DNA of 64,000 bases from NCBI RefSeq assembly GCF_015714725.1, contig NZ_WBKM01000118.1, forward strand, positions 12,501-76,500. The letters are read 5' to 3'. A program made the translations under genes and the position numbers. This document shows positions 9,979 through 28,205 of the stretch, piece after piece. Under the pieces are notes generated by a model. It saw only the letters and a list, made by a program, of their open reading frames with translations, was not told where the DNA came from and did no database searches. Each line of letters begins with the position of its first letter. Positions within the stretch are counted from its first letter, which is position 1. The stretch is from Nostoc sp. WHI (GTDB lineage: Bacteria; Cyanobacteriota; Cyanobacteriia; Cyanobacteriales; Nostocaceae).

Positions 9979-12900
9979 TTAGGCTGCGATGAAATCGCTC
10001 GTCGTAATTGTGTTTGCTAGAACGCCGTTTAGGGTCGCCAGTAGCTCGTTTGTTTCTGTGATGCGGATGAGGGTGTTTTTGCCATTTCCCTGGATCGACA
10101 GTTGACCGAATATCAGACCACCCGACAGAGCAATTAAATCTGTGCCGTTATTGAAGTCCTGAATCGTATCTGAGCCTTCGCCTGCTGCCAACACGAAGCG
10201 ATCGCTACCATTACCGCCAAGTAGGATATCCTGACCTTGACCGCCATTTAGCAGGTCATTGCCATTAGCACCACTGAGGCTATCGTTGCTGACCCCACCC
10301 AGCAAAATGTCGTTGCCGTTGCCACCGTTGAGGGTATCGTTGCCATTGCCACCGCTAAGGGTGTCGTTCTCATTGTTACCGTTGAGGATGTCTCTACCAG
10401 AAGTGCCAGTGAGTGCATCCTTGCCAGTGCCGCCGTCAAATACGCTGAGGTTACTCGCTAATTGGGCACCGATTACAACCGGATCGTGATCTGAGGAGCG
10501 ATAAGGCGTTGGCTCATAGAGTCCAGGGGGGTTAAATTCCTGGTTGTAATCCAGGATTCTGGGTTCGTCGGCGTTGATATGCCATTCGGTTGCTCCCGTC
10601 ACCTGGGCACTGAGGCTGGAAGTGCTTAGGGCATGATCCAGTCGTCCAGACTGCCCATCAAAGATAAAGGAGTAGGGGTCTTCGACATATTTGCCGAGTT
10701 CATCTAATAGTCCGCCATTTCGCAACACATCAATCGGATCTTCTTCACCATAAGCATTCAGATCCCCCAGGACTAATACATCGCTGTCGCCTGTGGTGGT
10801 CTTAAGCTCATTAACAAAGCCAAGCAAGGCTTCTGCCTGCTGAACCCGCGTGAAGTTAAAAGCACCTTGTCCATCGCCCTGGTCTACGTCTAACCCTGTG
10901 CCTGTACCAGCCTTTGACTTGAAATGGTTAATTACAGGGGTAAAGGTTTCGCCGTTGGAATTCAGGGCAAAGGTTTGAGCGACGGGTTGGCGATTGTAAA
11001 CAGTGTCAGGATCGCTGAGGGAAGCACCAACTGGGGTCACTATTCCTGGCTTGTAGATGAAGGCAACTTTAATCTCGTCAGTTCCTACTCCTGTAGCAGG
11101 ATCACGAATGTAGTCATAGATTTCTGCACCCAAAGATGTATTCAGCCGATCTACCAGTTCTGCGATCGCAGAATTAGCACCATCGCCATCATTTTCGATT
11201 TCAATCAGACCCACCACATCGGCATCGAGGGCAGAGATTGCGCTGACAATCTTGGCACTTTGTCGCTCAAACTCTGCTACATTGTCTGCTCCCCGCGAGG
11301 TCGGGAAGCCGCCACCCAAGCCGTCGCCATTGAAGTAATTCAGTACGTTAAAGCTAGCAACCTTAACGTTGCCGCCCACCTCATCGGGCGCAGCCGTCCG
11401 GGGATTAGAATCGATAAAATTGGGTGTTGCGGTGGGTTGGAGTCGGTAGCTGCCAAATCCGAAGCCCAGTACACCTGTAAGAGATGCAACCGTGCTACCT
11501 GCGCGCAGCGTGCCGTCATTTAAGAAGGGAACCGTTACGGGATTTTGGGTGTTGCTGCCATCGTCGAGCAGAATCTGACGCAAGTCGTTTGCGTTTTGTT
11601 GTGCTGTCACCGCAGCAACGTTGTTTTCGTCGTTCTCGGTTCCAGTAGTCGGAATATCGGTGGGGTCAATGAAGTTTGTGGGGTTAAACAACCGTCCCTC
11701 TGAAGATAGCAACACCTCACCAAACCGACCCAGGTTAAAGGTTTCAGTTACCGTCAAGGTTTCGGGGAATGTGACTAACATTCCCTCATAGCGCTCCAGA
11801 ACGGTTGTTGCAGTCACAGGTAGATCAAGCACTGTAGGGGCAATTAAGCCTGAACCCACGATGCTCAGTCCACTAATATTGCTGATCTGAGTTTGAGTAA
11901 AGCTCTCTCCAACGGTTCCGGTCAGCCGCACGGTTTGACCCACACTTACGTCTGTACTGTTAGGCGCAAAGATAAATATTCCGTCTGAGGTTGCAGTATT
12001 GCCATCTCCAACTGCTTCCTGTACAAAAAATCCATTCAGCCCACTGCTACCCTGAAAGTCGCCAACAACTACTGCCTCAATTGCCACTGTCTGCCCGACG
12101 AAAGGACTGATTGCACCACTTCCCTGAATTTCGTAAACCTCTCTGAGAGCAACATCGTTGTCAAGGATATTGACGTTGAGGTTAGGAATAGGCGTAAGTG
12201 TGTTGGAGTATGTCGGATCAGCACTGCTGGTGATCGTATGGGTAATTACTCCCGTGTGAGGAGATCCTTCGGCATCGAAGTCATTTACTGCTCTGACGGT
12301 AATCGTCCTGGAAGTAGCATTTGTCAAGCTTAGGGTGACGGAGTTAAAGAAGTTTATTCCATCCGTACTCACTTGAGTTTCTGCATCTGCGGCGATCGCT
12401 ACATTTACTGCACCTGTAGGTGTGGTCGTGAGGGCGATCGTGTAGGTATCAGTTGTCTCATTCTGCTCATCCACATCAGTACTGTTGCCAGATTGAACGA
12501 TGATTACTCCCGCTCCCGCTCCAGTTCCCGGATTAACGGTGTGGTTTCCTAATCCGCCAAAGGTGTCAACAGCAAAGCCGTTCCACTGCACACTCGGATC
12601 AAACGCATCGTTGGGATTGCTATCGCCAGTGGTGATACTACTGTTGCGGCGCAAGGTGTTGTCTGCTGTGCTAATTAGACCAGTTCCCCACTCAGTACCG
12701 GGGTCAAAGCCAATCTGACCGATTGAATCAAGGAGCATCCCACTAGCGCCGCCTTGCCGTAGCACGATCGCATCATCTCCGTTAAACCAGGCCGCACCGC
12801 TTGTTTGGTCTGCCTGCGCCAAAATTGGTGCGCTGGCGCTGCTTTGAGCTAGCACGAACACATCCCCATTTGCCACCGTGCCTGTTAAAGGAATGGTTAA

Positions 12901-13044
12901 TCCTGCCGTGGTGCTGCCATTGAAGTAAAACTGAACCACATAATTTCCAGCAGTTAAATCGATCGTTGCACCAGTGCTGTTGTAAATCTCTAGGGCTTTA
13001 TTGTTGCTGCTGCCCTCAATGTATTCCGAAAAAAATAATGCCAT
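9979..13044 (-). CDS. Secreted lamin-tail / endonuclease-exonuclease-phosphatase / RTX protein (ExeM-like)
   Basis: A 1021-residue multidomain protein. Residues 1 to about 130 form a lamin-tail domain (FFSEYIEGSSNNKALEIYN). About 175-290 is a beta-sandwich resembling Calx-beta. About 295-550 contains an OB-like segment seen in ExeM/NucH nucleases. About 558-863 is an EEP nuclease domain (VKVASFNVLNYF, ADVVGLIEIEN, LGDLNAYGEEDP, SSDHDPVV) with the expected Asn, Glu, Asp and His residues. About 873-960 holds GGxGxDxLxG calcium-binding RTX nonapeptides. There is no signal peptide, and the C-terminal RTX suggests type I secretion. It is probably an extracellular DNase or phosphatase for nutrient scavenging. 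Confidence 0.88.
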   Translation of the reverse strand: MALFFSEYIEGSSNNKALEIYNSTGATIDLTAGNYVVQFYFNGSTTAGLTIPLTGTVANGDVFVLAQSSASAPILAQADQTSGAAWFNGDDAIVLRQGGASGMLLDSIGQIGFDPGTEWGTGLISTADNTLRRNSSITTGDSNPNDAFDPSVQWNGFAVDTFGGLGNHTVNPGTGAGAGVIIVQSGNSTDVDEQNETTDTYTIALTTTPTGAVNVAIAADAETQVSTDGINFFNSVTLSLTNATSRTITVRAVNDFDAEGSPHTGVITHTITSSADPTYSNTLTPIPNLNVNILDNDVALREVYEIQGSGAISPFVGQTVAIEAVVVGDFQGSSGLNGFFVQEAVGDGNTATSDGIFIFAPNSTDVSVGQTVRLTGTVGESFTQTQISNISGLSIVGSGLIAPTVLDLPVTATTVLERYEGMLVTFPETLTVTETFNLGRFGEVLLSSEGRLFNPTNFIDPTDIPTTGTENDENNVAAVTAQQNANDLRQILLDDGSNTQNPVTVPFLNDGTLRAGSTVASLTGVLGFGFGSYRLQPTATPNFIDSNPRTAAPDEVGGNVKVASFNVLNYFNGDGLGGGFPTSRGADNVAEFERQSAKIVSAISALDADVVGLIEIENDGDGANSAIAELVDRLNTSLGAEIYDYIRDPATGVGTDEIKVAFIYKPGIVTPVGASLSDPDTVYNRQPVAQTFALNSNGETFTPVINHFKSKAGTGTGLDVDQGDGQGAFNFTRVQQAEALLGFVNELKTTTGDSDVLVLGDLNAYGEEDPIDVLRNGGLLDELGKYVEDPYSFIFDGQSGRLDHALSTSSLSAQVTGATEWHINADEPRILDYNQEFNPPGLYEPTPYRSSDHDPVVIGAQLASNLSVFDGGTGKDALTGTSGRDILNGNNENDTLSGGNGNDTLNGGNGNDILLGGVSNDSLSGANGNDLLNGGQGQDILLGGNGSDRFVLAAGEGSDTIQDFNNGTDLIALSGGLIFGQLSIQGNGKNTLIRITETNELLATLNGVLANTITTSDFIAA

Positions 13045-13561
13045 TGAAATCTCCGTAAAAGTCGCGAATTTAATGTTAGTTGATCAGGTGGACTGAGGCG
13101 ATCACCCTTCAGTATGAATATCACTCATAAACTCAGTAGAGTTTATGCGCTAAAAACTCTAGTGGTTTTAGGCGATCGCTGGACTAGCAGGTGAATGTTT
13201 ATTAATTCAAAAGCTTTAATAAGTTGTGGCTAGCAGATCCAATTTGGAAGTTTATCATAGCGACATTAAGGGATTAATATCCTTGGTTTAAACAATACCT
13301 TCGCCACAATGCCCTCACTCTAGAAAAGTGGGGCTAATACTTTTTGGTTAAGCAGAAAAGCTATTTGTTGAGGCAAGCTGCTCTTGAGCGGGAAGAGAAA
13401 GAATTACTGAACAACAACCCTCTTTTTTCTCCAGCCTAAAGAGCCGATCCGAAAAGTATTGGGGCTATTCCTAACTCAGTACTAATTAGATGTTAGTTTC
13501 ATCCACGCCAAGGGATTAATAATTCAAGGGATATCAAATATCCCTTTGAGTTTTTAGACGA
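13045..13561. other. Intergenic region between divergent secreted-protein genes
   Basis: This 517-bp gap must hold promoters for both the minus-strand nuclease and the plus-strand SLH gene. It contains scattered short inverted repeats (for example around AACTCAGTAGAGTTT near 13132) and one GCGATCGC at about 13173. I see no gene and no recognised operator. Confidence 0.5.
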
Positions 13562-15265
13562 ATGGTTAAATGTGAGATGAAATACATCAATCAAAGTTAC
13601 TCGGCTCATTTAAGCAAATTTGTGATTGCTGCAACCTCTGTGGCAATGTTCTCGCCAATAGCTTCTGCCTATGCAGCTTTAGGCTTCTCCACCACCATCG
13701 CACAAATACCTAGTAATTCCACTGAGCAACAACTTTTAGCTGACAACGAAGTAAAAATACGGAATCGCACCACTATCCAACGGCAAACTGTTACTACAGA
13801 AAGCCGCACTCAGGCAAAAGCGAAAAAAACAGGTTTTAGCCTTGCCATTTGGGAACCATCCGGTAGTTTGTCAGAGGTGATTGCTCGCGTTTCTGTCAAG
13901 AGTAAACGTAGCAAAAGCTATTTAAAAGAGCGGTTTTTGGGTGATTACAAGTACAAAATTAAGCAAAAAGCAAAATTTGCTAAGGGCTTAAAAGCTGGCG
14001 ATCGCATTGTCGTGCGATTATATGATATTCAAAACCGCTTTCTTGGCTACAGCGAATTTGAATGTTTGTCGGCAAATACCACAGTTAACCTGATTTTGTC
14101 AGCCAAATCTACAGAATATCAAGTTGTTCGTACTGTTTATGGTGTTGATGCTGACCAAAACGGCACTATTGATCGAGGTACTACCACTTACGACTACTTC
14201 ACCCAGTCCAGCAGCGACCAAAGGGTTAGTTTCCTTAGTAGTTCCCAAACCTTCCAAGCTAGTCAGTTCCAAGTAGAGGAATTGTCAACAGTTGCAGCAA
14301 CCAGCGTTTATCCCCTCTCTTTTACCCAAGGTGAATTCGCTGTGGTGCGTCAGTCGTCCATTAGCGTTTTTAGTTCCGACTTAGCAGAGGCTTTGCAAGC
14401 TACTCCTGGCAGCTTGGTACAGGTGACCGAAGTTAGCGATAACTCTAGCTATGATATCAGCCAACTGCTAATGAATTATCGCCAAGTTGGGATGTCTCGC
14501 GCTCTCCAGGTTGGTTTTTCTGATGTTTCCACAGACTACTGGGCCAAAGATTTTATTACCGAATTGGCAGCGATGGAAATTCTCGAAGGTTTTCCTGATG
14601 GGACTTTCCGCCCAGATGCACCAGTAACTCGTGCCCAATTTGCGGCAATGCTACGGAAAGCTTTTACAAAGGGGAAAATTCGCCAAGCGATCGCCTTTAA
14701 AGATGTCTCAACTCAATTCTGGGCTTATAATGCCATCAGAGAAGTTTATCAAATGGGCTTTTTAAACGCTGTTATTGCCAAGGATTTCAACCCCAGTCAA
14801 AGCCTGTCTCGCCTTGATATTCTGGTAGCATTAGCGCAGGGATTAAATTATCAAACCAGTGGTTCCACGGATACAATTTTATCTGTTTACAGTGATGCGA
14901 CTACTATTCGTCGTGAACATCGCAGTCTAATTGCTGCCTTGACACAACGCGGTATAGTCGTCAACTATCCCAATGTGAACATGCTAAGTGCTGAACGGGT
15001 AGCAACCAGGTCTGAAGTGTCTGCTTTGTTATACCAAGCCCTTTCTAGTACCGAAGAGGTAGCAAACATCTCCTCGCAATATGTCGTTGGAGAATCACAA
15101 CAAGTTGCAGTTGAGGAGCAAACTGAAACTTCGACAGAGGGCGTCAAACCCCGTCGCAATTGCAACCAAGGAATTGGTAATGGTGCTGAGGGCTGTGACC
15201 CTGGCAATTCCCGTCCCCACGGTGGCAGTAACGATGAAGGCGGACGTACTCCTGGTAACAAGTAA
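13562..15265 (+). CDS. S-layer homology (SLH) domain protein
   Basis: 567 residues (ATG at 13562; an ATG at 13577 is equally possible). A signal peptide ends near ASAYA. The middle (about residues 40-310) is a basic, beta-rich region of unknown fold. Three SLH motifs follow: about 318 (FSDVSTDYWAKDFI with EGFPDGTFRPDAPVTRAQFA), about 378 (FKDVSTQFWAYNAI) and a weaker one at about 443-498. The tail is Gly/Asn/Pro-rich (GNSRPHGGSNDEGG). In cyanobacteria SLH domains bind peptidoglycan-linked polymers and usually anchor outer-envelope proteins. A cell-envelope structural role is inferred. Confidence 0.88.
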   Translation: MVKCEMKYINQSYSAHLSKFVIAATSVAMFSPIASAYAALGFSTTIAQIPSNSTEQQLLADNEVKIRNRTTIQRQTVTTESRTQAKAKKTGFSLAIWEPSGSLSEVIARVSVKSKRSKSYLKERFLGDYKYKIKQKAKFAKGLKAGDRIVVRLYDIQNRFLGYSEFECLSANTTVNLILSAKSTEYQVVRTVYGVDADQNGTIDRGTTTYDYFTQSSSDQRVSFLSSSQTFQASQFQVEELSTVAATSVYPLSFTQGEFAVVRQSSISVFSSDLAEALQATPGSLVQVTEVSDNSSYDISQLLMNYRQVGMSRALQVGFSDVSTDYWAKDFITELAAMEILEGFPDGTFRPDAPVTRAQFAAMLRKAFTKGKIRQAIAFKDVSTQFWAYNAIREVYQMGFLNAVIAKDFNPSQSLSRLDILVALAQGLNYQTSGSTDTILSVYSDATTIRREHRSLIAALTQRGIVVNYPNVNMLSAERVATRSEVSALLYQALSSTEEVANISSQYVVGESQQVAVEEQTETSTEGVKPRRNCNQGIGNGAEGCDPGNSRPHGGSNDEGGRTPGNK

Positions 15266-15271
15266 GACGAT

Positions 15272-15715
15272 TTAAGTTGTAGAGACGCGATTAGTTGCGT
15301 CTCTAGCTTGATTAACTGTAAAACTAATTTCCTGACCAGATGAAATCTCTAGCGTATGACCATCTGGGTCTTGAAGGTAAGCCCAGTAACCAACGGGCGG
15401 TTCCCAGTCATTTGGCCCAGCCAGCAGTAGCCCTTCTTGGCGTGCCTCATCGCACAGGCGAGTAACTTCCTCACGATTCTGATAAGCTACACCTAGATGG
15501 GATTGGGGTAACAGTGCGCCTTGTACTTTAGCTGCTTTAATTAGGACAATCACAAAAGGTCTGGTTAGGTCACTAATCCAAGCAACATCTACTTGAGTCG
15601 TTTGATCAGTGCGACGATGTACGACTGTCATCTGGGCATACTTTGCATAAAACGAGATACTTGCATCGACATTAGTAACTGCAAGTGCAATATGAGTAAA
15701 ACCGAGATCAGACAT
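15272..15715 (-). CDS. VOC family (glyoxalase/bleomycin-resistance-like) protein
   Basis: About 147 residues from the ATG at 15715, which follows GGAG; an upstream in-frame ATG at 15790 adds a non-homologous leader. It has the paired beta-alpha-beta-beta-beta modules of the vicinal-oxygen-chelate fold: GFTHIALAVTNVDASISFYAKYA, then HLGVAYQ, then YWAYLQDPDGHTLEIS. The candidate metal ligands His (THIALA), His (SHLG) and Glu (TLEIS) are present. The substrate is unknown. The last ten codons (RDATNRVSTT) are encoded by an inverted repeat that also looks like a terminator. It converges on the SLH gene with a 6-bp gap. Confidence 0.82.
   Translation of the reverse strand: MSDLGFTHIALAVTNVDASISFYAKYAQMTVVHRRTDQTTQVDVAWISDLTRPFVIVLIKAAKVQGALLPQSHLGVAYQNREEVTRLCDEARQEGLLLAGPNDWEPPVGYWAYLQDPDGHTLEISSGQEISFTVNQARDATNRVSTT
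15279..15305. repeat. Inverted repeat/terminator-like hairpin overlapping the VOC gene end
   Basis: TAGAGACGC and GCGTCTCTA flank an 8-nt loop (GATTAGTT). This is a widespread Nostoc spacer hairpin. Here it forms the last codons of the VOC gene and follows the SLH stop by about 14 bp, so it may terminate the SLH transcript while being translated from the other strand. Confidence 0.75.
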
Positions 15716-15834
15716 TAAAAGAACTCCGTGTGTAGACTTGAGCGGACGAATGTAGGTATTGGACTCAGTGCTTACCAAGAAAGCTGACACGATTGATAAT
15801 GAAGATAGACGTTATCTTCACAAAATTTAAATTT

Positions 15835-16593
15835 ATGTTTTTAACTTGGTTAGACAGCAACTCCTGGCTGCTGGAAATCGGTAGTAAAAGTATACTAATT
15901 GACCCTTGGCTAGTTGGTTCGTTAATTTTCAGCAATTTGGATTGGTTGTTTAAAGGTTCGCGATCGCAAAATCGCCCAATACCAGATAATATTGATCTGA
16001 TCCTCCTGTCTCAGGGTTTAGAAGACCATACTCACCCACCAACGCTTAAATTACTTGATCACAGCATCAAGGTTGTAGCTTCTCCCAATGCTGCCAAGGT
16101 AGTACAGCAGTTAGGTTACACCCAGGTAACAACTCTGGCTCATGGTGAAACTTTCACTTTAAATAATCAAGTTGAAATCAAAGCTTTTCCCGGCTCTCCC
16201 ATTGGCCCCACTTTAGTGGAAAATAGTTATCTCCTCAAAGAATTGGAGAGTGGTTTAACAGTATACTACGAGCCTCACGGGTATCATTCTCCACAACTTA
16301 ATCAGGCTGCCCCAGTTGATGTGGTGATTACACCATTTGTTGACTTAACGCTGCCTTTGCTTGGGTCGATTATTAAAGGACAAAATAGCGCTTTGGAAGT
16401 GGTAAAGTCGTTACAGCCTCAAGTAATATTACCTACAGCCGCCGGTGGAGATGTGGCGTTTGAGGGATTGCTGATGAAATTTATTCAGACGAAAGGAAGT
16501 GCTGAGGAATTTCGTTCGTTATTAGAGAAAAATAATCTTTCGACGCGGGTACTTGAGCCGAAACCAGGCGATCGCTTTGAACTACCATTTTAG
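15835..16593 (+). CDS. MBL-fold metallo-hydrolase (UlaG-like)
   Basis: About 252 residues from the ATG at 15835 (MFLTWLDSNSWLLEIG); upstream in-frame starts at 15793 and 15799 add non-conserved residues. It has the beta-lactamase-superfamily layout: NSWLLEIGSKSILIDPWLVG, the metal-binding loop SQGLEDHTHPPTLKLL (a variant of HxHxDH), then YYEPHGYHS and VVITPFVD. This resembles the cyanobacterial UlaG-like branch. The metal-ligand loop is less canonical than in lactonases, so the chemistry is uncertain. No operon partner; divergent from the VOC gene. Confidence 0.8.
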   Translation: MFLTWLDSNSWLLEIGSKSILIDPWLVGSLIFSNLDWLFKGSRSQNRPIPDNIDLILLSQGLEDHTHPPTLKLLDHSIKVVASPNAAKVVQQLGYTQVTTLAHGETFTLNNQVEIKAFPGSPIGPTLVENSYLLKELESGLTVYYEPHGYHSPQLNQAAPVDVVITPFVDLTLPLLGSIIKGQNSALEVVKSLQPQVILPTAAGGDVAFEGLLMKFIQTKGSAEEFRSLLEKNNLSTRVLEPKPGDRFELPF

Positions 16594-18795: not shown

Positions 18796-21700
18796 ATGAA
18801 CAAAGTCAAACTCAGAATCTACGAACTAGCAAAAGAATTAAATTTGGATAGCAAGAAGCTATTAGCAATTTGTCAGCAACTCAACATTGCAGTCAAAAGC
18901 CATAACAGCAGTATCTCAGAATCCGAAGCAGAACGCATTCGTGTAGAGGCAAAGAAACTAACAGTAAAATCCTCGAAAATTAAAACAAACTCTGAAGATT
19001 GGGGCTATGTATTTATAGCTTCAGCAATTGATAGTTTTATCCGCCATCTTGAAGGTAAAACTGCCCTAGAAGCATATCCCGAATTTAGAGAGCGACGCGA
19101 TCGCGCCAATGAGTTAATGTATGAATGTGTAGGTAAAAAGCCTTCTCTATTTTATGTACATCGCAAGGGTGCGGGGAAAGAGCCAAGAGAAGAAATTTGG
19201 GATTTGACAATAGCAACAGACTGCGATGATTTTCAATTACCCACAATACTTGACAAGCTCAGAAAAACATTAGGATTTAGAGCGGCTGTACAAAAAGATG
19301 GACGCGGCGGTTTAAAAATACTATCGGCTCAGTTGCTACAGCCCTCACGGGGACACGCCGATAGCTATGCTGTACCTTGTCGCTTACGTTTGCTCCCTAA
19401 TCATCAGCATCATCTCGACATTCCGCCGAAGATATTGGCACGTATAGCAGCAGCGCCAGTTTGTGGCGATCATGTGCCTACAGAAGAGCAGCTGAAAGCT
19501 TGGAAAGCGTTTTTGCAAATTGAAGAAAAAATCGCAAAAGCGCGTCAATTTTGTGTGCGTTATGTAAGTCATAACTATAACTTTAAAAGGCGGATCAGTT
19601 TTGAAATTGATGTAGCCTCAGCCACCCTTGACGGCTTTTATCAAAATTCCCTCGACGTGGAAAACTTTTGGGAGCGAGCAAGACGGACAAAAAACGAAGA
19701 TTTAAAACTTTTTGAAACTGCTCCCATCGGAAAAAATTGGATTAGCGGCCGCCAACTAGGGACTGTTGAAGATGTTGACCCCAACCGTTGTATTATCAGT
19801 CTCAGACTAGAACGCGACTTAGCTGAATATATGGCAGCAGAGCGTTATCAATTACCAGCTACCGGATTCTTGTGTTTTGAGGCAGTTGGTGACATTCAGC
19901 AGATTCAGCGCAAGAAAAAAGCTTTGGAAGATTTGAATAATGGTTACACCCAAAATCCATATTTGGGAAACTTTTTGTTCGATGCTTCTCAGGCTAGACA
20001 AATCAAAACAACTATCGAACTTCAACCACAAGATTTGTTACTATCTTCTGCTAATCCTGGTCAAAAAGCAGCAGTAGAAAAGGTACTTGCCGCCAAGGAT
20101 CTTGTTCTTATCCAAGGGCCACCGGGTACTGGTAAAACTACCGTAATTGCCGAGATTTGCTATCAAATTGCCCTTCGCGGTGGACGCACGTTAATTGCAT
20201 CTCAAGCCAATTTAGCAGTAGATAACGCCCTAAGTCGATTAGTTCATAACCCAGTAATTCGGGCTGTACGCAAGGGGAGAGCCGAGAAAGTTGGGGAAGA
20301 AGGACAGCCATTTTTAGAAGACCAAGTGATTGGCAGATGGCTAGAAAATACTGCGGCTGACTGCGAAAATAATCTTACTAAACGGCTCGAAAATATTCAA
20401 ATTTTCAGTCAATTAGTGGCATCATCACCAAGATTTACAGCTTACTTCCAAGCAGAGGAAGAATTTAATCAGCAACAAAATAAATTCACTAAAAATAAGA
20501 TAAAAGTAGAGGAAAACTTTAAAAATCAAGAGAAATCTTATAATGAAACTGTAGCAAAACAAAATGAGGTTGAATCCCTAATTGCGGGTATGGGAAACAT
20601 ACTAAATACTGCACCAAATATCAATTGGGAAGCTCCAGAAGTTACAAATTTTTTGCCACTTCTTAAGCCCTACACAGAAGGAAACAGTTTAGTAGAAGAA
20701 TTTTTAGCAAATATTCGTAAAGCTACTCAATATACTGATGAACTTGGCTTGGTGCGGCCGACGCTTGGTGCTTTTGGTTTAGCGGCTTGGTTGCGTGAAA
20801 CTGTAGCAACAGAAATTTCTGAGTTTAAAACTGCTTTTAGTTATGCTCAAAATGCAACTGAAATCATGTCGGAAGTTGCAGCGCAGGTACAGGTTGTTAA
20901 ACAGAATTTCGCCTTATTAAATCAGCTACAACCAGAATATCAGCAATATCTTACCAAACTGCAAAATCTACAGCAAACAATCCAGATATGGCAAAACCGC
21001 CAACGGGAAATTGATTATATTATCTCAGCAGTCAAGGAATGGAAATCTACAGCACATTCCCATCTGTATCAAACCTTGAAAGAATGTCATCAATCAGGTT
21101 TACCATTAACAGAGAATTTAGTAGATTTACCACTAGGTTTGTTGATGTTTGCTAATACATTAAAGCTAACAATAGTCCCAAATAATTATAATATAAACTT
21201 ACCAGACTGGGAGCTATTGGCAAAAGCGATCGCTTATGAAATAGAAGGAGGTTTTACTGATAGGCGGGGTAAACAGCATAATTTTAGCTATTTTTTACAA
21301 CAAAATTTTAGTCAGATTCCAATGGTGCTATCTAAAAGCGATACCTCCGGCGGGCTTTGCGATCGCACCCGATGGCAAGAAATCTATCAACAGTTTAACA
21401 ATTATCAATTACTCACCCCAAAACAGCGAAAATTACTAGTTGAAAATACCCAGGTTTTTTTAATTAGAATGCAAAAAACCTATGGTGCATCATGGGAATG
21501 GAATAACATAGATTCTACTCTTACCCAAATTACACAAGAATTGTTAGATACTATTCTTATAAATGCACGTCAATGCGTTTTAAAAGTAAAAACCGAAACT
21601 GAACAACAGCTTCAGAATTTACAACAACTATTAAATGAACTTCAGAAAAATGAAATTAGTCAACAGCAAATATCTATTACTCAAGCTGAGGTAGAAAAAG

Positions 21701-23295
21701 CACAGCAAGACGCTAATTTGCAACTTGGAAGAGTTATTAATATTTTGCAAGAACTTAATCAACAAAATATACCTGCTCAATTACGCATTCTAACTGAACA
21801 ATATCTTGCAACACAATCAAATATTTGGGAGCAACCCCAAGAATTCTCAAAGCAAGTGCATTCTTGGGGAAGTTGCATCAGTCAACTTGAAACCTTAATT
21901 TCATCATTAGAACCTTTTGCTGTGCTGGAGATAATTAGAAATTCTCTGCATGAGCATTTATCAAAACTAAAACAAGAAACTGAAACTTCTCTACAGCAGC
22001 TTCAGAAATTACAAATTAATCTCCGCGAAATAGAACATAAATCACAACCACAACCCTCAGAAAACTTAACAGAGCAAAGAAACTGGTGGTTGACAGAATG
22101 GCAAACAATACCGGATAAATTTAAACCAGGAAATTCTGCTGCTGACTTGTTTAATTTAGAGTTATTACGCAGTATGAATACTAATTTTGAGTCTTGGCAA
22201 CAGCAACTCCAAAAAGACGAAGTTTATCTCAATAAATATCAGAATTTTGTTCAAGATTGGATTGGAAAACTAAGAAATCCAACTGAACGCGATAGCGACG
22301 ATTTAAGGCGTATATATCTAGATAATGCCAACGTCGTCGGTATCACCTGTGTTCAAGCTGCGAGTAGGGGTTTTTCGGAAGAATTCAAATCTTTTGATGT
22401 CGTCATCATTGATGAAGTGAGTAAATGTACTCCTCCAGAGTTACTAATCCCAGCTTTGAAAGGCAAAAAGTTAGTCATGGTAGGCGATCATCGGCAATTA
22501 CCACCTATGCTTGATACTAGCACTTTAGAAGAAGTTGCTCAAACAATTGGCAATACACGAGACGAACTACAATTCTTAGAAGAATCGCTGTTTAAAAGTC
22601 AGTTTGAATCTGCTGATGAAAGCATCAAACAAATGCTAACTACACAATATCGAATGCACCCATTTATTATGGGAGCAATCAACCAGTTTTATGACGGCAA
22701 ACTAGAATCTGGTATTTTGGAGCCGGACACAAAACGTGCACATCATCTAGCAGGTGAAATCATCCAAGAATCTCACCACATTCTCTGGGTAAAAACGCCT
22801 ATTGAGAATCAGTTTTTAGAGCAACGAAAGGGAACTTCTTACTTTAATACTCAAGAAATTGATGCGATTGAACGTCTGTGTCAGCAGTTTGAGAATATTT
22901 GGGCTTCTAAAGTTGCCAATGGGGAACCAAAAAAAGAAATTGCCGTAATTACGTTTTATGGCGCTCAATTAAGAAAAATCGATGAACGTCTGCAATCTGA
23001 ACTTTTCCCTTCGCTAGAAATTCGTACTGGTACAGTAGATAGATTTCAAGGTATGGAAAGACCTGTTGTAATTGTAAGTATGGTTCGCAACAACAGTAAA
23101 GGAGATGTGGGATTTGCTAAGAAGCCAGAACGGGTAAATGTTGCATTCTCTCGCGCTCAAGAACTCCTGATAATTGTGGGTTGTCATAATTTATTTACCC
23201 ATCAATCAGGTCAAGTCGGAAGTATGTACTCAGAAGTTTCAAATATTGTAAGTCTTCATGGAGGTTTCGTTGATGTTTCTCGCCTCTTCTACTAA
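18796..23295 (+). CDS. Giant SF1 (UPF1/Dna2-like) helicase with N-terminal IF2_N domain
   Basis: 1499 residues. Residues 1-50 are an IF2_N-type domain ([27 protein letters not shown]). About 70-430 is a helicase-associated region without a name I can give. The SF1 core is split: Walker A at about 442 ([17 protein letters not shown]) with motif Ia ([15 protein letters not shown]), then about 700 residues of Gln/Glu-rich coiled coil, then motif II at about 1203 (VVIIDEVSK), motif III ([12 protein letters not shown]), motif IV-like YRMHPF, motif V ([18 protein letters not shown]) and motif VI ([17 protein letters not shown]). All ATPase motifs look intact. The last 23 bp overlap a vestigial PLD start. 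A possible nucleic-acid defence or repair role is inferred. Confidence 0.85.
21338..21366 (+). repeat. Nostoc dispersed repeat inside the helicase coding region
   Basis: A 29-bp stretch beginning GCGATACCTCCGGCGGGC and ending GCGATCGC resembles the dispersed Nostoc element of type GCGATGCCT..GGCGGGCTACGC. It encodes the odd segment [10 protein letters not shown] (about residues 848-857) within the coiled-coil insert, in frame. It looks like a repeat tolerated inside a gene. Confidence 0.5.
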
Positions 23296-23320
23296 ACCTC
23301 TTGATGACAATTTTAAGAAT
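23273..23320 (+). pseudogene. Vestigial 5' end of a PLD-like gene (first copy)
   Basis: An ATG at 23273, inside the helicase 3' end, opens [16 protein letters not shown], nearly identical to the start of the intact PLD-like gene at 26373 (MFLAYSAKPIDDNLKN). Homology stops after about 16 codons and the frame soon ends. This marks where a helicase-PLD overlap once continued into a full PLD gene. Confidence 0.8.
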
Positions 23321-23952
23321 TGTATAAGTAGGTATGCAAAAATATTTATGTGATTGCGTACTCCTGTGGAGACGCTACACTCGCAATGACGATGTATATT
23401 TAATTTTGCATTACTACTTAGAAGAGATTGAGGCTATCTATTAGGCAAATTAGCCCTTGCCCTTACCCATAATGCCATTCCCTCTTTCTTCTTTAACCGA
23501 GAAGTATTTAGATACCATACATTTCTGGAAAAGAGATTGTGGCATGTGTAGTCTAGAGCAAATATCACTTGATGCTCAATTTAGCTCAAGGGGGGTCTAA
23601 TGATTGATCGCTTAGTGAATCTAATTTTTATCGATTCCTTTGCCCTAGCAATTAACCTGGCGTTTGGTACACTGCTTCGCACTAAAATCTGCAATTATTC
23701 ATGGGATGGATTTGCAGATGAGCTTTCAACACCAGCAAGCAGTATTAGTTCTTCTGAATTGCCACCATCTTTGGAGGAAGTAGATATAAACACTCCTATT
23801 TCATAAAGCCTGCCTGCTATTGTTGTCGAATTACTTTAGTTGACGTTTTGCGTGATTTGCAAAGATTATTAAAATTTAATCTTTGCAAATCAAAAAAATC
23901 TGAGAATTGGATTACCTTAAGGCTCTCAACCAGCAAAACACCCATGTTCACA
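23321..23952. other. Insert left part: spacer with no secure gene
   Basis: This stretch follows the PLD vestige. It contains a typical Nostoc spacer repeat at about 23355-23390 (CTGTGGAGACGCTACACTCG) and a 68-codon frame at 23600-23806 (MIDRLVNLIFIDSFALAI), which has no recognisable family and which I do not support as a gene. Confidence 0.5.
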
Positions 23953-24253
23953 CAGGGTTAGCGCGTCTCAAACCCTATTGACAAATCGATTCTATGAGAG
24001 TGTTGAGTTAGAGAAAGCCGCCGCCAAAACAGAAACCATATACTGATCATTCATCGCGGCTCGCCGTGACTTTTGGCGAATACTGCGGCGGAAAGATGAT
24101 TCTCGCCCTAAGGCATTCAGGGCAATGCGACGTAGCTTTAGAATTATTCTGTGGACTGTGCAGAGAACGAATTCGACATTCATCCTCATTGAAAGTGACA
24201 TCTAATGTCCAATGAACAGAATTTTCAATACCCCAATGCTCGCGCTAACCCTG
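23953..24253. mobile_element. 301-bp MITE-like remnant of an ISAs1-type insertion sequence
   Basis: Perfect 13-bp terminal inverted repeats: CAGGGTTAGCGCG at 23953-23965 and its complement at 24241-24253. They bracket a fragment of an ISAs1-family transposase on the minus strand. A 19-bp extended form of the end (CAGGGTTAGCGCGTCTCAA) recurs in the same orientation at 25988-26006. No clear target duplication is visible. The element is an internally deleted, non-autonomous copy. Confidence 0.75.
23992..24238 (-). pseudogene. ISAs1-family transposase, C-terminal fragment with frameshift
   Basis: On the minus strand the fragment begins [20 protein letters not shown], the signature of ISAs1 (H-repeat-associated) DDE transposases, where the Glu is catalytic. 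Near 24140 it shifts frame into [20 protein letters not shown] and ends [18 protein letters not shown]. Only about 80 of some 370 residues remain and the frame is broken, so it is inactive. Confidence 0.8.
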
Positions 24254-24281
24254 GCTCATCTCCCTCCCTAAAAATAGTACC

Positions 24282-24304
24282 TGCGCCACCGTTCGCGTGG
24301 CGCA
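24282..24304 (-). terminator. Hairpin after the amidotransferase-like gene
   Basis: A perfect 8-bp stem (TGCGCCAC at 24282-24289, GTGGCGCA at 24297-24304) with a 7-nt loop, 12 bp past the gene's stop. It could terminate the minus-strand transcript. Part of it (24267-24289) matches the C-terminal coding sequence of the GAF fragment at 25763-25785, so it may instead be relic coding DNA. Confidence 0.45.
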
Positions 24305-24315
24305 AGCTAATAGCA

Positions 24316-25713
24316 TTACTCTTGCATTCCTGCATACAGCAGTCGTACAAATAAACGCACACCATCATCATTCTTCAATATAGAATATGATGGAGCTTCA
24401 CTGTTACCAATCGCACGCAAATCTGACAGCAATTCTGGATGGAATTGACAAGTAAAAGAGCGTCGGATTTTCTTAGTTTCAAAGTCTTTATAATTAATAC
24501 AGGTAGCCGAACATTCCGTAACTATTTCACCATTTTCCTCTGCTGTTGAACAAAGAATTTCTACAGCATCGGGTAGTTGTATCAACCATGACAAAGTACT
24601 ACCAGCGATGATGTGCCGATAAGGAACAATGGCATCATGTATCATCCGGTAAGCCCAATTAGCAAACAGTATCGCTTCTTCGTTGACTTCATCCGAGTGG
24701 AACATCGAAATCGATACTTGACGCTCGTATTGAATCGTTGTGTCAATCACGCCTTCGTGAGTATCAGCCGTTACATCATGAGCATGAATAATTTCCCAAG
24801 GAATACTTAAGGCATCGCCATCAGGAGACTGATAAGGCAACAACACACTCGCGCCTACTTCCTTTGATTCGTTGCGCGTCACGGCAAAATGTTCATCATT
24901 CCAGCCAGTAGCAACTATGCGTCCATCGCGCTTTTTGATTTGGAGTGTCTTGCCCATCGCTTGGATGCGTTCTGCAACTTCTTGCAGTGATTTGAGAGTT
25001 CTACCGTCTTTGTCACGTTCTAGAGATGTCGTGCTAAGAACTTTCTTGACTGCTCGCCGAATCAGTCGGATATGACATTCAGCAGCCAGTTGATGCCCTA
25101 CACAAATAAAGATTGCGGCAGCACTACTAGGCGATCGCGAAATCAGTAACTTTTCCACTAATCCAAACATATCTTCTCGCGGGCAAGCCGGACTTGTCCA
25201 AGTGGATGCATCGTAAGTCGAAGGATCGCCGCCTTCCACTACCACCGCATAACCAGAAGTAATTGCCGGAATCACTATCTCTGGATCGATGACTCCAGTT
25301 GACCAAACAGGCAACAATACTGAGTCCATATCCGCGACTTTCTGAGCAATGTAGGCAATGTTTTTCGAGGCTCTAACATCTTCACCGGCAGCGTTAACAC
25401 CTACATGTTCCCAAGGTTCGATGATGGTTATAGAATTGCGTAACAAATTAGAGTGCAACAGCAGAAACTCTAAATCTGACCGTGAATTAATGACTTTTTC
25501 TAAAGGCGAAGCATGTCCCCATTCAAAAATGCCATCGGCGGCAAACAATTCTTTTTGGTCAAGCGGATTTTCCGAATTTCTATCTGCTAAGAAACGACCT
25601 AATAAAATATGTGCCGATTCAAAATCTGATCTGCCTGAATGCAAGTAGCCGGGAGTTAATCGCCAGTCGGCTATGGTGGTTTTATTGTTGTTAAATTTGA
25701 TAGCTTCTACCAT
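24316..25713 (-). CDS. Class I glutamine-amidotransferase-like protein
   Basis: 465 residues. I do not know a named family. The segment at 199-212 (AAIFICVGHQLAAE) matches the GATase nucleophile elbow (C-x-G-H-Q, Cys204), and FTCQFHPELLSDLR at 420-433 matches the catalytic His-x-Glu (His425, Glu427). So the full Cys-His-Glu triad of a class I amidotransferase is present. The N-terminal 190 residues (SVLLPVWSTGVIDPEI, GYAVVVEGGDPSTYD) extend the Rossmann-like domain, and a 60-residue insert separates the Cys from the core. It sits alone in the insert between two copies of a helicase-PLD module. Its amide acceptor is unknown. Confidence 0.6.
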   Translation of the reverse strand: MVEAIKFNNNKTTIADWRLTPGYLHSGRSDFESAHILLGRFLADRNSENPLDQKELFAADGIFEWGHASPLEKVINSRSDLEFLLLHSNLLRNSITIIEPWEHVGVNAAGEDVRASKNIAYIAQKVADMDSVLLPVWSTGVIDPEIVIPAITSGYAVVVEGGDPSTYDASTWTSPACPREDMFGLVEKLLISRSPSSAAAIFICVGHQLAAECHIRLIRRAVKKVLSTTSLERDKDGRTLKSLQEVAERIQAMGKTLQIKKRDGRIVATGWNDEHFAVTRNESKEVGASVLLPYQSPDGDALSIPWEIIHAHDVTADTHEGVIDTTIQYERQVSISMFHSDEVNEEAILFANWAYRMIHDAIVPYRHIIAGSTLSWLIQLPDAVEILCSTAEENGEIVTECSATCINYKDFETKKIRRSFTCQFHPELLSDLRAIGNSEAPSYSILKNDDGVRLFVRLLYAGMQE

Positions 25714-25736
25714 GTGTCCTCAACAATAGATTTATA

Positions 25737-26006
25737 TTATATGATATGGTCATCTTCATTCCTAAAAGTAGTACCTGTGCCACACTTTGCATATCGCCTA
25801 ACGATCGCCTCGGTTGCTGCAATAATTTCCATATCTTGCTCCCAAATTTCCGACATGAAAAAGACAAGGATAGCTACGATATTTCTCTCTACTATAGGTA
25901 TCCCAAAGCCAGCTTTAGCTCCAAAAGCTTTAGCAATTTGATTACGTAAAAAATAGGATTCGGATTGAGCAGAGACATCGGCAATCCCAGGGTTAGCGCG
26001 TCTCAA
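25737..26006 (-). pseudogene. GAF-domain protein, C-terminal fragment
   Basis: The frame encodes the second half of a GAF sensor domain: an IADVS motif, then FLRNQIAKAFGAKAGFGIPIV, then VAILVFFMSEIWEQD and IIAATEAIVRRY. This is the pattern of cyanobacterial GAF-histidine-kinase or cyclase sensors. It lacks the start of the domain and any effector. The 5' end runs straight into the IS terminus (25988-26006), so it was truncated by that insertion. A short match to its last codons lies at 24267-24289. Confidence 0.65.
25988..26006. mobile_element. Solo IS end (ISAs1-type terminus)
   Basis: A 19-bp sequence CAGGGTTAGCGCGTCTCAA identical to the left end of the MITE-like element at 23953-23971 and in the same orientation. 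It marks the point where the GAF fragment is cut. The rest of the element is missing. Confidence 0.65.
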
Positions 26007-26257
26007 GGCATCTTATTTGCCTGTAATTTTCAAGTAGCCATCACCAAAGCTAACATTTTTCGTCGTAAAACTTAGGTTTTAAGTCACTTCTAGTATTGAG
26101 AATATAGGCAATATAGCAATCCTATTTGATTTGTGAAAATTGAAAGCCTTAGATTCCCGACTTTTTAAATAAGTTGGGAATTTTATTGTTGGTGGGCAAT
26201 ACTACTCCAAATAAGCAAAGCAGCAGAAATTGAAGATGTTTTTTCTTCCCAGCATCG

Positions 26258-26395
26258 GGGTTCCATAATGATAGCATCAAACAAATGTGGTATCTTAGAG
26301 CCTGACACCAAACGCGCACATAATCTCGGAAGTTTATTTAAAACATCGTGCGTCTACATGGAGGTTTCATTGATGTTTCTCGCCTATTCAGCTAA
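26258..26395 (+). pseudogene. Shredded 3' end of a second helicase copy
   Basis: Three blocks align with the intact helicase gene in order. AGCATCAAACAAATG (26265-26279) matches about 22621. The block coding [13 protein letters not shown] (near 26283-26325) matches 22711-22750. The end coding LHGGFIDVSRLFS plus stop (26352-26395) matches 23252-23295. Intervening sequence is deleted and the frame is broken between blocks. This is the relic of a second helicase gene directly upstream of the surviving PLD gene. Confidence 0.85.
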
Positions 26396-28205
26396 ACCTA
26401 TTGATGACAATCTCAAAAATTTGGTAGACGAAATAGAAGCGCAAAGCCTTAGTTTATCAGTTTTAGCAGCGCGTCAATTTCGCTATAGCTTGCGTCAAAC
26501 TCCTGTAGAAGTAAATATCAAAGAACCCCGCCAGTTTAACGTACTCGAAGAATTTATTATCCGCGCTGCTATTGAATTTCAACCTCCGCCAACAGAGGAT
26601 GAATTAGCATCTGTACTTGGGCTTGATTCTATATTTATCCAAACTACTACTGCAACTCTTCGGACATTACAAACTCTATCAGCAACATCGCCAATTACAG
26701 TCACTCCTGAAGGTCGTTTATTCTATGAGAAAGGCTCTGTACCACAGCCACCATATCTTGTACAGCTTAATGCTATTACAGACCCTTTAAGCGACAAAAT
26801 CACCTTTCAATCTGAATCCTTAAACGAGACAGTGATAAATTTGCCAGACTTGGCAGACTTTATAACTATTGATCATACAATTATTGATATTTCTTTGTTA
26901 CCGCTTGAGGAAATACAAAAAAGTATTCAAGCTTCAGGTTTAGCACTTCATGTCCCAGAAGAGGGAAAAATTGTCACTTCCTATAAGGTATTAGCTTCGA
27001 CTCAAAAAATTTGGAGAAAGATATCGTTTTTTGTTATCTTTGATTCCCTTGAGGATAAGTTGAGCATCCAAATAAGAAATGGAAAGCAAATTTTAGAGTC
27101 AGCATCAAATTGGTTAGAAGTGCTACACGCTGAAGGCAAAATATCTTTGCAAGCATTATGTAAATTGTCAACTGAAACCATCAATTTTCAACGTGAAGTC
27201 GTTCTCAAGGAAAAAAATGCTGAAATAGAAGCTAGACTCGAAAAGGTTCGCCAAAAGGCGCTAGAAACTGCCACAAAAACCAGTCAAAAACTAGATAATT
27301 CTACAGTGCTAGGTGAAGCTATACAGTTACGCAATGGACAAATTAGCCAAGCTTTTTCAGAAGTTTTAAATTCGGCTAAACGTCAGGTTTTGATTTATTC
27401 TCCTTGGGTGAATCAGGCAGTTGTCAATGACACATTTCTAACTCTGTTACAGAAATTAGCTAATCGCGGAGTTTGGATTTTAATTGGACATGGAATTTCG
27501 CGGCAACAAGAAGACGAAGATAAACCAATTCCACCAGAAGTAGAGAAAAAACTTCGAGCGATAAAAACACCTGATGGTTTACCATCTGTACAGGTTTTTT
27601 GGTTGGGAGATTCCCATGTTAAAGAAGTAATAGTTGATCAGGAAATCCATCTTTGTGGTTCTCATAACTGGCTATCTTATCGCGGCGATTACCTACCACG
27701 AGGTGAGTCAGTTTATAAAGTTACAATTCCCCATCAAGTCCAGGAAGCTTATGAATTTCTCGCTAATCGCTTCCAAAATCAGGCTCAAAAATTATGGCAA
27801 AATGCTCTAGAAAACCGCGATTATAAACTGGCTGTAGAGTCTTTATGTGTGTGGGGTGCGCTATGTATGGAAGACATTGCACTCCAAAAGATAGAGCAAA
27901 ACAACTGGCTGGAACTTCTGCCTATATGGTTGAGTGTGGCACTTCAGGGGTTAAAGTCCAAGAATATACAACCTGATTCAGTAATTTTTAAGACAGCACT
28001 TTCGTTGCTGAATCAAGTTTCTATTGAAGAAGCTTTTATTGAGCCATTGCAAGAGGGATGGCGTAAAGTTATGGGCGCGATCGCAATTAACAATCCTCAA
28101 ATTGCTTCAAACTTACTTAGTGATGAAGTGTGGGCGCAGTTTCTACGTCTCAATATTGTTCAAAAGAGTGATTCACCTGCTGATTTTATTCTGTATCGCC
28201 CTTAA
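26373..28205 (+). CDS. Phospholipase-D-like (HKD) protein with N-terminal winged-helix-like region
   Basis: 610 residues from the ATG at 26373 (MFLAYSAKPIDDNLKN). A longer frame opens at 26268 but its first 35 codons are helicase relic. Residues about 44-125 look like a winged helix (EEFIIRAAIEFQPPPTEDELASVLGL). About 275-310 is a coiled coil. The PLD domain spans about 315-470: QVLIYSPWVNQAVVND, then the HKD motif HVKEVIVD near residue 415, then GSHNWLSYRGD. One HKD is visible, so an active enzyme would need dimerisation. The start once overlapped the helicase stop by 23 bp, so helicase and PLD form one module. Confidence 0.82.
   Translation: MFLAYSAKPIDDNLKNLVDEIEAQSLSLSVLAARQFRYSLRQTPVEVNIKEPRQFNVLEEFIIRAAIEFQPPPTEDELASVLGLDSIFIQTTTATLRTLQTLSATSPITVTPEGRLFYEKGSVPQPPYLVQLNAITDPLSDKITFQSESLNETVINLPDLADFITIDHTIIDISLLPLEEIQKSIQASGLALHVPEEGKIVTSYKVLASTQKIWRKISFFVIFDSLEDKLSIQIRNGKQILESASNWLEVLHAEGKISLQALCKLSTETINFQREVVLKEKNAEIEARLEKVRQKALETATKTSQKLDNSTVLGEAIQLRNGQISQAFSEVLNSAKRQVLIYSPWVNQAVVNDTFLTLLQKLANRGVWILIGHGISRQQEDEDKPIPPEVEKKLRAIKTPDGLPSVQVFWLGDSHVKEVIVDQEIHLCGSHNWLSYRGDYLPRGESVYKVTIPHQVQEAYEFLANRFQNQAQKLWQNALENRDYKLAVESLCVWGALCMEDIALQKIEQNNWLELLPIWLSVALQGLKSKNIQPDSVIFKTALSLLNQVSIEEAFIEPLQEGWRKVMGAIAINNPQIASNLLSDEVWAQFLRLNIVQKSDSPADFILYRP

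What the first reader, a model, noticed from the sequence alone, without database searches (positions are those of the whole stretch)
18796..28205. A helicase-PLD gene module duplicated, then split: reciprocal relics at 23273 and 26258
Seen: the helicase gene (18796-23295) overlaps an ATG at 23273 that opens a 16-codon match to the PLD gene's start. Upstream of the intact PLD gene (26373) lie three ordered fragments of the helicase 3' end (26258-26395), with the same stop/start overlap preserved. So the two genes are normally one overlapping unit, and this locus descends from two copies in tandem that were trimmed to one working gene each. Known: helicase plus PLD nuclease pairs recur in bacterial anti-phage systems such as DISARM (DrmA helicase, DrmC PLD), but this SF1/coiled-coil/PLD pairing is not one I can name. 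Inference: an IF2_N-SF1 helicase/PLD system, possibly defensive, with recombination shuffling its copies.
Basis: partly seen in the sequence, partly recalled or inferred. Interest (0 to 1): 0.82.

Follow-up and report, generated by a model that had tools for sequence, protein, structure and literature searches.

The report
Ribosome-tagged helicase with swappable nuclease partner
In Nostoc cyanobacteria a helicase resembling an antiviral protein carries a piece of a translation factor and is encoded apart from its partner protein; remains of a second, different helicase gene lie between them, and relatives repeatedly lose or replace the partner's cutting domain, which suggests that a virus-defence module became a stable part of the cell.

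Summary
The helicase (18796-23295) and PLD gene (26373-28205) are MkoA- and MkoB-like: a divergent relative of the Mokosh anti-phage system. Outside the genus, 95 of 102 helicase 3' ends have MkoB within 1.5 kb behind and 77 overlap it: normally one unit. The blocks at 26046-26400 are not from a copy of the intact helicase but from a second, divergent helicase (helB), its 5' leader included; 4 of 34 congeners keep large parts of helB. Two unlike modules stood in tandem and were trimmed to one gene each. New here: (1) helA begins with an IF2_N domain 65-67% identical to the genome's own translation factor IF-2; helB of one congener has an IF-2 piece too, with IF-2 linker that helA lacks; (2) the MkoB N-terminal domain is the conserved part; the PLD domain has been lost repeatedly, with the N-domain still under purifying selection where tested, or replaced by DarT; (3) helA is core and follows infB in divergence in Nostoc (33 of 34 congeners). 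Where helA is missing or decayed (G202, G366), MkoB is broken too. The likely role is translation-coupled RNA surveillance or defence; this is inferred, not shown.

The parts
18796..23295 (+). helA: UPF1-like SF1 helicase, MkoA-like, with N-terminal IF2_N domain (residues 5-51), AAA_11/AAA_12 and a fast-evolving central region
   Evidence: PADLOC MkoA E 2e-115, Pfam AAA_12 3e-48, AAA_11 8e-40, IF2_N 2e-13; PDB sequence hits IGHMBP2, UPF1, NAM7, IF-2
18796..18981 (+). IF2_N segment, by similarity taken from infB
   Evidence: 65-67% aa and 71% nt identity to the start of the genome's own InfB; helicase matches that include it were seen only in this family
23273..23321 (+). relic of a MkoB start behind helA (the first 23 nt are helicase coding)
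   Evidence: repeat D1; collinear relics in 8 congeners; not significant beyond the stop in the window alone
24316..25713 (-). gene of unknown function inserted between the two halves; not part of the module
   Evidence: no match in the other regions of the 54 examined; weak GATase hit below cut-off
26046..26255 (+). remnant of the 5' leader of the second helicase gene, helB
   Evidence: 81% over 211 nt to the helB leader of G018, E 1e-50
26151..26183 (+). terminator-like hairpin in the helB leader
   Evidence: 13-bp stem, -15.7 kcal/mol for the 46-nt stretch folded; comparable stems with other letters in G018, G031, G009 and G019, other folds in G020, G010 and G024
26266..26326 (+). two helB coding fragments (at about helA residues 1273-1280 and 1304-1318)
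   Evidence: 96% over 23 nt and 98% over 43 nt to G018 helB
26337..26395 (+). helB 3' end with its stop codon, still overlapping the MkoB start by 23 nt
   Evidence: 94% over 64 nt to G018 helB
26373..28205 (+). MkoB-like gene, 610 aa: N-terminal domain, single-HKD PLD nuclease domain, helical C-terminal region
   Evidence: PADLOC MkoB 4e-27; model pLDDT 86, pTM 0.57; Foldseek matches NucT, PLD3/PLD4, Zucchini and TrmB-family proteins, aligned ranges not given
26373..27227 (+). MkoB N-terminal domain, the conserved part
   Evidence: alignment A1; dN/dS 0.19 against 0.31 and 0.34 for the PLD and C regions, 13 long forms chosen from the genus
27615..27638 (+). catalytic HKD motif HVKEVIVD (residues 415-422)
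   Evidence: H and D invariant among the 21 long forms of alignment A2

Best explanation
A Mokosh-like helicase/partner module of Nostoc and related cyanobacteria. Shown by comparison: a UPF1-like SF1 helicase is normally encoded with a short overlap (often 23 nt) in front of a MkoB partner made of an N-terminal domain plus, in many lineages, a PLD nuclease domain. In ancestors of this genus a second, divergent helicase-MkoB pair stood just downstream. The first pair lost its partner gene and the second its helicase, so one helicase (helA, with an IF2_N domain taken from infB) and one partner remain, separated by debris. Inferred: helA and the remaining partner form one complex. IF2_N brings the helicase to ribosomes or initiation complexes, the helicase acts on abnormal or foreign transcripts being translated, the MkoB N-domain couples to it, and the PLD domain cuts the RNA. 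The effector is exchangeable: some lineages lack it, and a rare one carries DarT instead.
For: Family. Unit: 95 of 102 within 1.5 kb, 77 overlapping; helicase stop exactly 23 nt inside MkoB in 46 of 80 named loci, 46 of the 51 with a helicase adjacent. Second helicase; helB-like 3'-end traces just before MkoB in 14 of 35 genus genomes plus 4 with large helB. IF-2 origin. Both partners retained: MkoB in 34 of 34 congeners, helicase in 33 of 34 (the exception, G034, is 72% complete). Joint loss: G202 has no helA (20 of 20 candidates scored) and a frameshifted MkoB, G366 has both decayed, while infB is intact in both. helA distances follow infB (Spearman 0.86, 0 of 2000 permutations). Effector modularity.
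Against: No experiment: complex formation, RNA cleavage, ribosome binding and phage defence are all untested. helA and MkoB are unlinked in several congeners, so they might act apart. The PLD domain is missing or has a changed motif in many relatives, so nuclease activity cannot be the core function everywhere. It is unresolved which helicase lineage the surviving MkoB first belonged to: the MkoB tree does not place it with G069 or G101. IF2_N could bind something other than the ribosome.
Confidence: 0.55

Rival explanations
1. An ordinary anti-phage Mokosh system: the Nostoc pair is a divergent Mokosh I that degrades phage transcripts, and the locus changes are routine turnover in a defence gene.
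For: PADLOC MkoA and MkoB hits; recurrent loss and effector swap (DarT) are typical of defence systems; helB is decayed to different degrees in different congeners.
Against: The same genome carries a full Mokosh I with kinase, helicase and PLD on another contig (MkoA 894 bits against 385 for the window gene). Matches like that one (33-35% to helA) were listed in 4 of 35 genus genomes, which used helA as query and scored at most 9 candidates a genome, while helA is in 34 of 35 and follows infB in divergence. Six neighbouring window ORFs gave no PADLOC hit.
Confidence: 0.3
2. True tandem duplication of one module within Nostoc, followed by reciprocal loss.
For: 84% repeat over 85 nt; tandem arrangement in G018 and G025; in G004 helA and helB agree at residues 1290-1380 as closely as helA orthologues do (pS 0.20), which fits a local exchange between them.
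Against: helB forms a clade with G069 and G101 away from the helA genes (quick tree, G069 and G101 are long rows); helA and helB agree about as poorly as helA and G069 in the central region (14-43% per 60-residue bin), and most of the high 3' identity is general conservation.
Confidence: 0.1
3. helA and MkoB in Nostoc no longer work together: each was kept for a separate function after the split.
For: They are unlinked in several congeners (G002, G003, G012, G015, G026); the PLD domain is lost in 6 of 34 congeners while helA stays open.
Against: Both are kept in nearly every congener; in G202 helA is gone and MkoB broken, and in G366 both are decayed, with infB intact in both genomes. G020 was dropped as evidence because its own infB is broken, which points to assembly errors.
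Confidence: 0.2

Closest known systems
Mokosh type I (MkoA + MkoB)
   Same: UPF1-like SF1 helicase and a PLD-nuclease partner that matches the MkoB model including its N-terminal part.
   Different: No kinase or NERD domain found; IF2_N instead; helicase and partner encoded apart; core gene in Nostoc; partner often without PLD domain in relatives.
Mokosh type II (MkoC)
   Same: Both window proteins hit the MkoC model.
   Different: Two genes, not one fused protein.
DISARM (DrmA/DrmC)
   Same: PLD nuclease; weak DrmC hit.
   Different: DrmC model 19.6 bits against a cut-off of 133; no DrmA hit.
DarTG toxin-antitoxin
   Same: In relatives G042 and G024 the MkoB N-domain is fused to or followed by DarT, with an ADP-ribosylglycohydrolase gene next to it.
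   Different: Not in the window; the hydrolase family (PF03747) differs from the macrodomain antitoxin DarG (recalled).
UPF1 / IGHMBP2 helicases and Zucchini/PLD6
   Same: Nearest solved helicase sequences are IGHMBP2 and UPF1; Zucchini and NucT are among the fold matches; PMC11291487 (passages seen) notes homology of Mokosh to the piRNA pathway.
   Different: Bacterial; bears a translation-factor domain.

Membership tests
Mokosh type I | UPF1-like SF1 helicase (AAA_11/AAA_12) | tested here: met
Mokosh type I | PLD-nuclease partner matching MkoB | tested here: met
   met in the window, but of 76 relatives' proteins 21 are short PLD-less forms and 7 other deviant forms
Mokosh type I | kinase domain on MkoA (as in the genome's own second locus; recalled as typical for type I) | tested here: not met
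   no Pkinase hit in helA at E 0.1; present at C252
Mokosh type I | NERD domain (listed for type I in PMC10952713, passage seen) | tested here: not met
Mokosh type I | helicase and PLD genes adjacent | tested here: not met
   3 kb apart here; within 1.5 kb in 95 of 102 matches outside the genus
Mokosh type I | anti-phage activity | not testable with these tools
   needs phage assays
Mokosh type II | helicase and PLD fused in one protein | tested here: not met
   two ORFs
DISARM | DrmA helicase and DrmC above model cut-offs | tested here: not met

The most novel reading that the evidence does not exclude
A Mokosh-type defence helicase was domesticated in Nostoc as a ribosome-targeted RNA surveillance factor by capturing the N-terminus of translation factor IF-2, and this capture happened twice, once in each of two unlike helicases at one locus. 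Its partner is an adaptor (MkoB N-domain) whose catalytic part (PLD nuclease, DarT, or none) is interchangeable.
Probability: 0.25. Interest if true: 0.82.

Novelty: new variant of a known kind. Interest (0 to 1): 0.6.

Why it matters
A 2026 review still lists Mokosh as of unknown mechanism (PMC12926258, passage seen). If a Mokosh relative carries a domain of the cell's own IF-2 and is kept as a core gene, that points to where the system works (at translation) and gives a direct test. Repeated loss of the PLD domain with the partner domain still under selection says the adaptor, not the nuclease, is the constant part. The Nostoc locus also shows, at several stages, how two unlike modules are reduced to one gene each.

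Tried and rejected
Gene conversion between the 3' ends of helA and helB: suggested by 80-90% identity there. Not supported in general, because helA against the G069 helicase shows the same profile and synonymous differences are mostly 0.33-0.63. One exception stands: in G004, residues 1290-1380, pS is 0.20 over 91 codons, as low as between helA orthologues, so a local exchange there is possible. The C-terminal helicase tree was too short to use.

Co-decay of helA and MkoB in G020 as evidence of partnership: dropped, because infB of that assembly is broken as well. G202 and G366 passed the same control.

IF2_N tree as proof of two captures: not decisive. helB falls between helA and infB, and the one-clade test was uninformative. 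The argument rests on the extra IF-2 linker in helB of G018 (score 99, 0 of 1000 shuffles; helA of G018 563, of the window 283 of 1000) and on IF2_N being absent from helB's sisters G069 and G101. For the IF2_N tree 20 of 33 InfB loci given were used; the pattern missed the other 13.

TrmB-family fold matches as a sign of a winged helix in the N-domain: not claimed, since the output gives no aligned ranges. Window relic at 23273 alone: not significant beyond the stop. DISARM: rejected. A DarT-bearing 681-aa ORF in G109: not this system; another N-part by eye, and no helicase of this family in that genome. Paper searches for Mokosh with cyanobacteria, IF2_N with helicase, and DarT with helicase and related terms gave no description of this combination in the listings seen (one search asked for 3 of 4 terms and listed 10 of 31 papers); some searches were further Mokosh listings. 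Of papers, only passages of PMC10952713, PMC11291487, PMC12278908 and PMC12926258 were seen. Millman et al. 2022 is recalled only.
Full report
What is there. The window lies in a cyanobacterium whose same-genus relatives match contigs mostly named Nostoc (the held genomes themselves are unnamed). The helicase at 18796-23295 (1499 aa) is a UPF1-like SF1 helicase and hits PADLOC MkoA at E 2e-115; the PLD gene hits MkoB at 4e-27. The nearest solved helicase sequences are IGHMBP2 and UPF1. The PLD domain carries one HKD motif (HVKEVIVD), and the model (pLDDT 86, pTM 0.57) matches NucT, PLD3, Zucchini and TrmB-family proteins (no aligned ranges given). So this is a Mokosh relative. It is not a canonical type I: the helicase's best MkoA stretch is its core, and it has no kinase or NERD hit. 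The genome's own canonical system (kinase, helicase, PLD) sits on another contig and matches MkoA at 894 bits, against 385 for the window gene.

The normal unit. In draws of 388 and 378 genomes of the order, MkoB relatives were found in 119 (E <= 1e-15) and the helicase in 108 (E <= 1e-50) (at most 3 and 2 candidates a genome were scored). For adjacency I used the 102 helicase matches outside the genus that reach the 3' end (query residue 1492 or later) and dropped shorter pieces. MkoB lies within 1.5 kb behind in 95, by match coordinates overlapping in 77, 0-50 nt away in 4 and 51-917 nt away in 14. Of the 7 without, G319 and G401 end within 460 nt of a contig edge, and G351 and G341 have MkoB 7 and 3 kb further on. 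Of 80 named loci (the best 80 of 152 found), 51 have a helicase end within 200 nt, and in 46 of these its stop falls exactly 23 nt inside MkoB, even where the helicase is reduced to a frame of 33-43 codons. Among the 35 genus genomes the intact helA overlaps MkoB in G029 only.

The relics. The blocks before 26373 match the second helicase, helB, better than the intact helA: leader 81% over 211 nt, then 23, 43 and 64 nt at 94-98% in order, against 84% over 63 nt and 95% over 20 nt for own helA. Large helB genes stand before MkoB in G018, G020, G025 and G031. helB-like 3'-end traces stand just before MkoB in a further 14 of 35 genus genomes, the window's included; two of these (G005, G022) are only 32 and 45 nt. 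Of the rest, G029 has helA there, G008 only a weak match elsewhere, and 15 none. In 11 of those 15 the end of another gene precedes MkoB, by eye; it is the SBF transporter identified in G018. G018 shows helA, transporter, a 23-codon MkoB relic, helB and MkoB in a row. Behind helA, 8 congeners keep a clear MkoB-start relic. The first 23 nt of such a relic are helicase coding and prove nothing.

Not copies. In a quick tree of residues 200-780, helB of four genomes forms one clade (99) that joins G069 and G101 (100), away from helA. G069 and G101 are long rows there, so their exact place is less sure. The similarity of the 3' ends is mostly general conservation: helA against G069 gives the same profile, and synonymous differences do not suggest recent conversion except in G004, residues 1290-1380. 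So two unlike modules stood in tandem.

The IF-2 piece. helA begins with an IF2_N domain (2e-13) that is 65-67% identical to the start of the genome's own InfB, 71% at DNA level. Helicase matches that include it were listed in the genus and in other genera of the same family only. helB of G018 also starts with IF2_N (1e-9) and continues for 48 residues of IF-2 linker (0 of 1000 shuffles), which helA lacks (563 and 283 of 1000). Its DNA match to infB starts before the ATG and runs 215 nt. helB's sisters G069 and G101 lack IF2_N. A separate capture is therefore favoured, though the short IF2_N tree does not decide it. In G020 helB has the start codons but not the domain, and helB of G018 is itself decayed.

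The partner is modular. Of 76 MkoB proteins read (the broken genes of G020, G202 and G366 left out), 48 are long with HKD, 21 are short (272-327 aa) and without the motif, and 7 are other. Presence and absence of the PLD domain needs at least 6 changes on the N-domain tree of the 76, and 1 within the 36 genus rows. In the genus, five short forms make one clade (100/96), and their N-domain evolves at dN/dS 0.22-0.30, so it is still under selection without the nuclease; in 13 long forms chosen from the genus the N-domain is the most constrained part (median 0.19, against 0.31 and 0.34, my own counting script). G351, G402 and G392 keep the N and C parts but lack the PLD part. Full-length forms with a changed motif exist: G379 (HIRE), G246 (HAQE), L219 (SYVKE), L249 and L251. 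In G042 the N-domain is fused to DarT (2e-18), and in G024 it is followed by a DarT-like frame (4e-17), both beside an ADP-ribosylglycohydrolase gene. Such fusions look rare: a draw of 388 genomes of the class (the table lists no match for G042 or G024) gave one long DarT frame, in G109; it begins with another sequence, has a hydrolase-like frame behind it by eye, and that genome has no helicase of this family.

Core or defence. MkoB is in 34 of 34 congeners and the helicase in 33 of 34 (G034 is a 72% complete draft; G027 is cut by a contig end and G020 is broken). Pairwise distances of helA follow those of infB (Spearman 0.86; MkoB N-domain 0.74; 20 genomes; 0 of 2000 permutations). In G202, a congener outside that set, helA is gone apart from short 3' pieces (20 of 20 candidates scored) and MkoB is frameshifted; in G366, of another genus, both genes hold many stops; infB is intact in both. 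Matches like the genome's own canonical system (33-35% identity to helA, E <= 1e-20) were listed in 4 of 35 genus genomes (at most 9 candidates a genome scored; kinase checked only for the own genome). Six window ORFs near the pair gave no PADLOC hit. This is the behaviour of a core gene.

Mechanism. PMC11291487 (passages seen) states that Mokosh degrades viral transcripts and has domain homology to the piRNA pathway; PMC12926258 (passage seen) lists its mechanism as unknown. I infer that IF2_N places the helicase at initiating or translating ribosomes, the helicase acts on the RNA, the MkoB N-domain binds the helicase, and the PLD domain cuts where it is present. None of these steps is shown. 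The core status makes RNA surveillance as plausible as phage defence.

Verdict. The new points are the captured IF-2 domain, the core status in Nostoc and the exchangeable effector.

Noticed in passing
26151-26183: A terminator-like hairpin in the remnant helB leader; comparable stems with different letters in G018, G031, G009 and G019, but not in the stretches of G020, G010 and G024 folded. It may end an upstream transcript or regulate helB.
   Followed up: partly
23953-23971 and 25988-26006: An identical 19-nt direct repeat flanks the stretch with the inserted minus-strand gene (24316-25713); by eye, not searched, 24000-24240 resembles a degraded transposase, so a mobile element may have inserted here.
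   Followed up: no
L116:7651-10539 and L118:1757-4913: A MkoB N-domain joined to or followed by DarT, behind a helicase and beside an ADP-ribosylglycohydrolase gene (G042, G024): possibly a new toxin-type offshoot of Mokosh.
   Followed up: partly
L174, L175, L176, L180, L117, L179 (start of the helicase ORF): Helicases of other lineages carry a 190-230 aa N-terminal extension with a recurring pattern around 'GEYKGP'; the five tested (all but L179) had no Pfam hit at E 0.01. The N-terminus seems to be a site of domain exchange.
   Followed up: partly
G000:C252, about 11380-16584 (L121): A full canonical Mokosh I (kinase, helicase, PLD) is present in the same genome.
   Followed up: yes
L322 (G020 infB): infB is broken in the G020 assembly, so frameshifts in that genome should be read as probable assembly errors.
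   Followed up: yes
L324 (G109): DarT at the end of a 681-aa frame with another N-part, followed by an ADP-ribosylglycohydrolase-like frame: the DarT-hydrolase pair also occurs without the helicase.
   Followed up: partly
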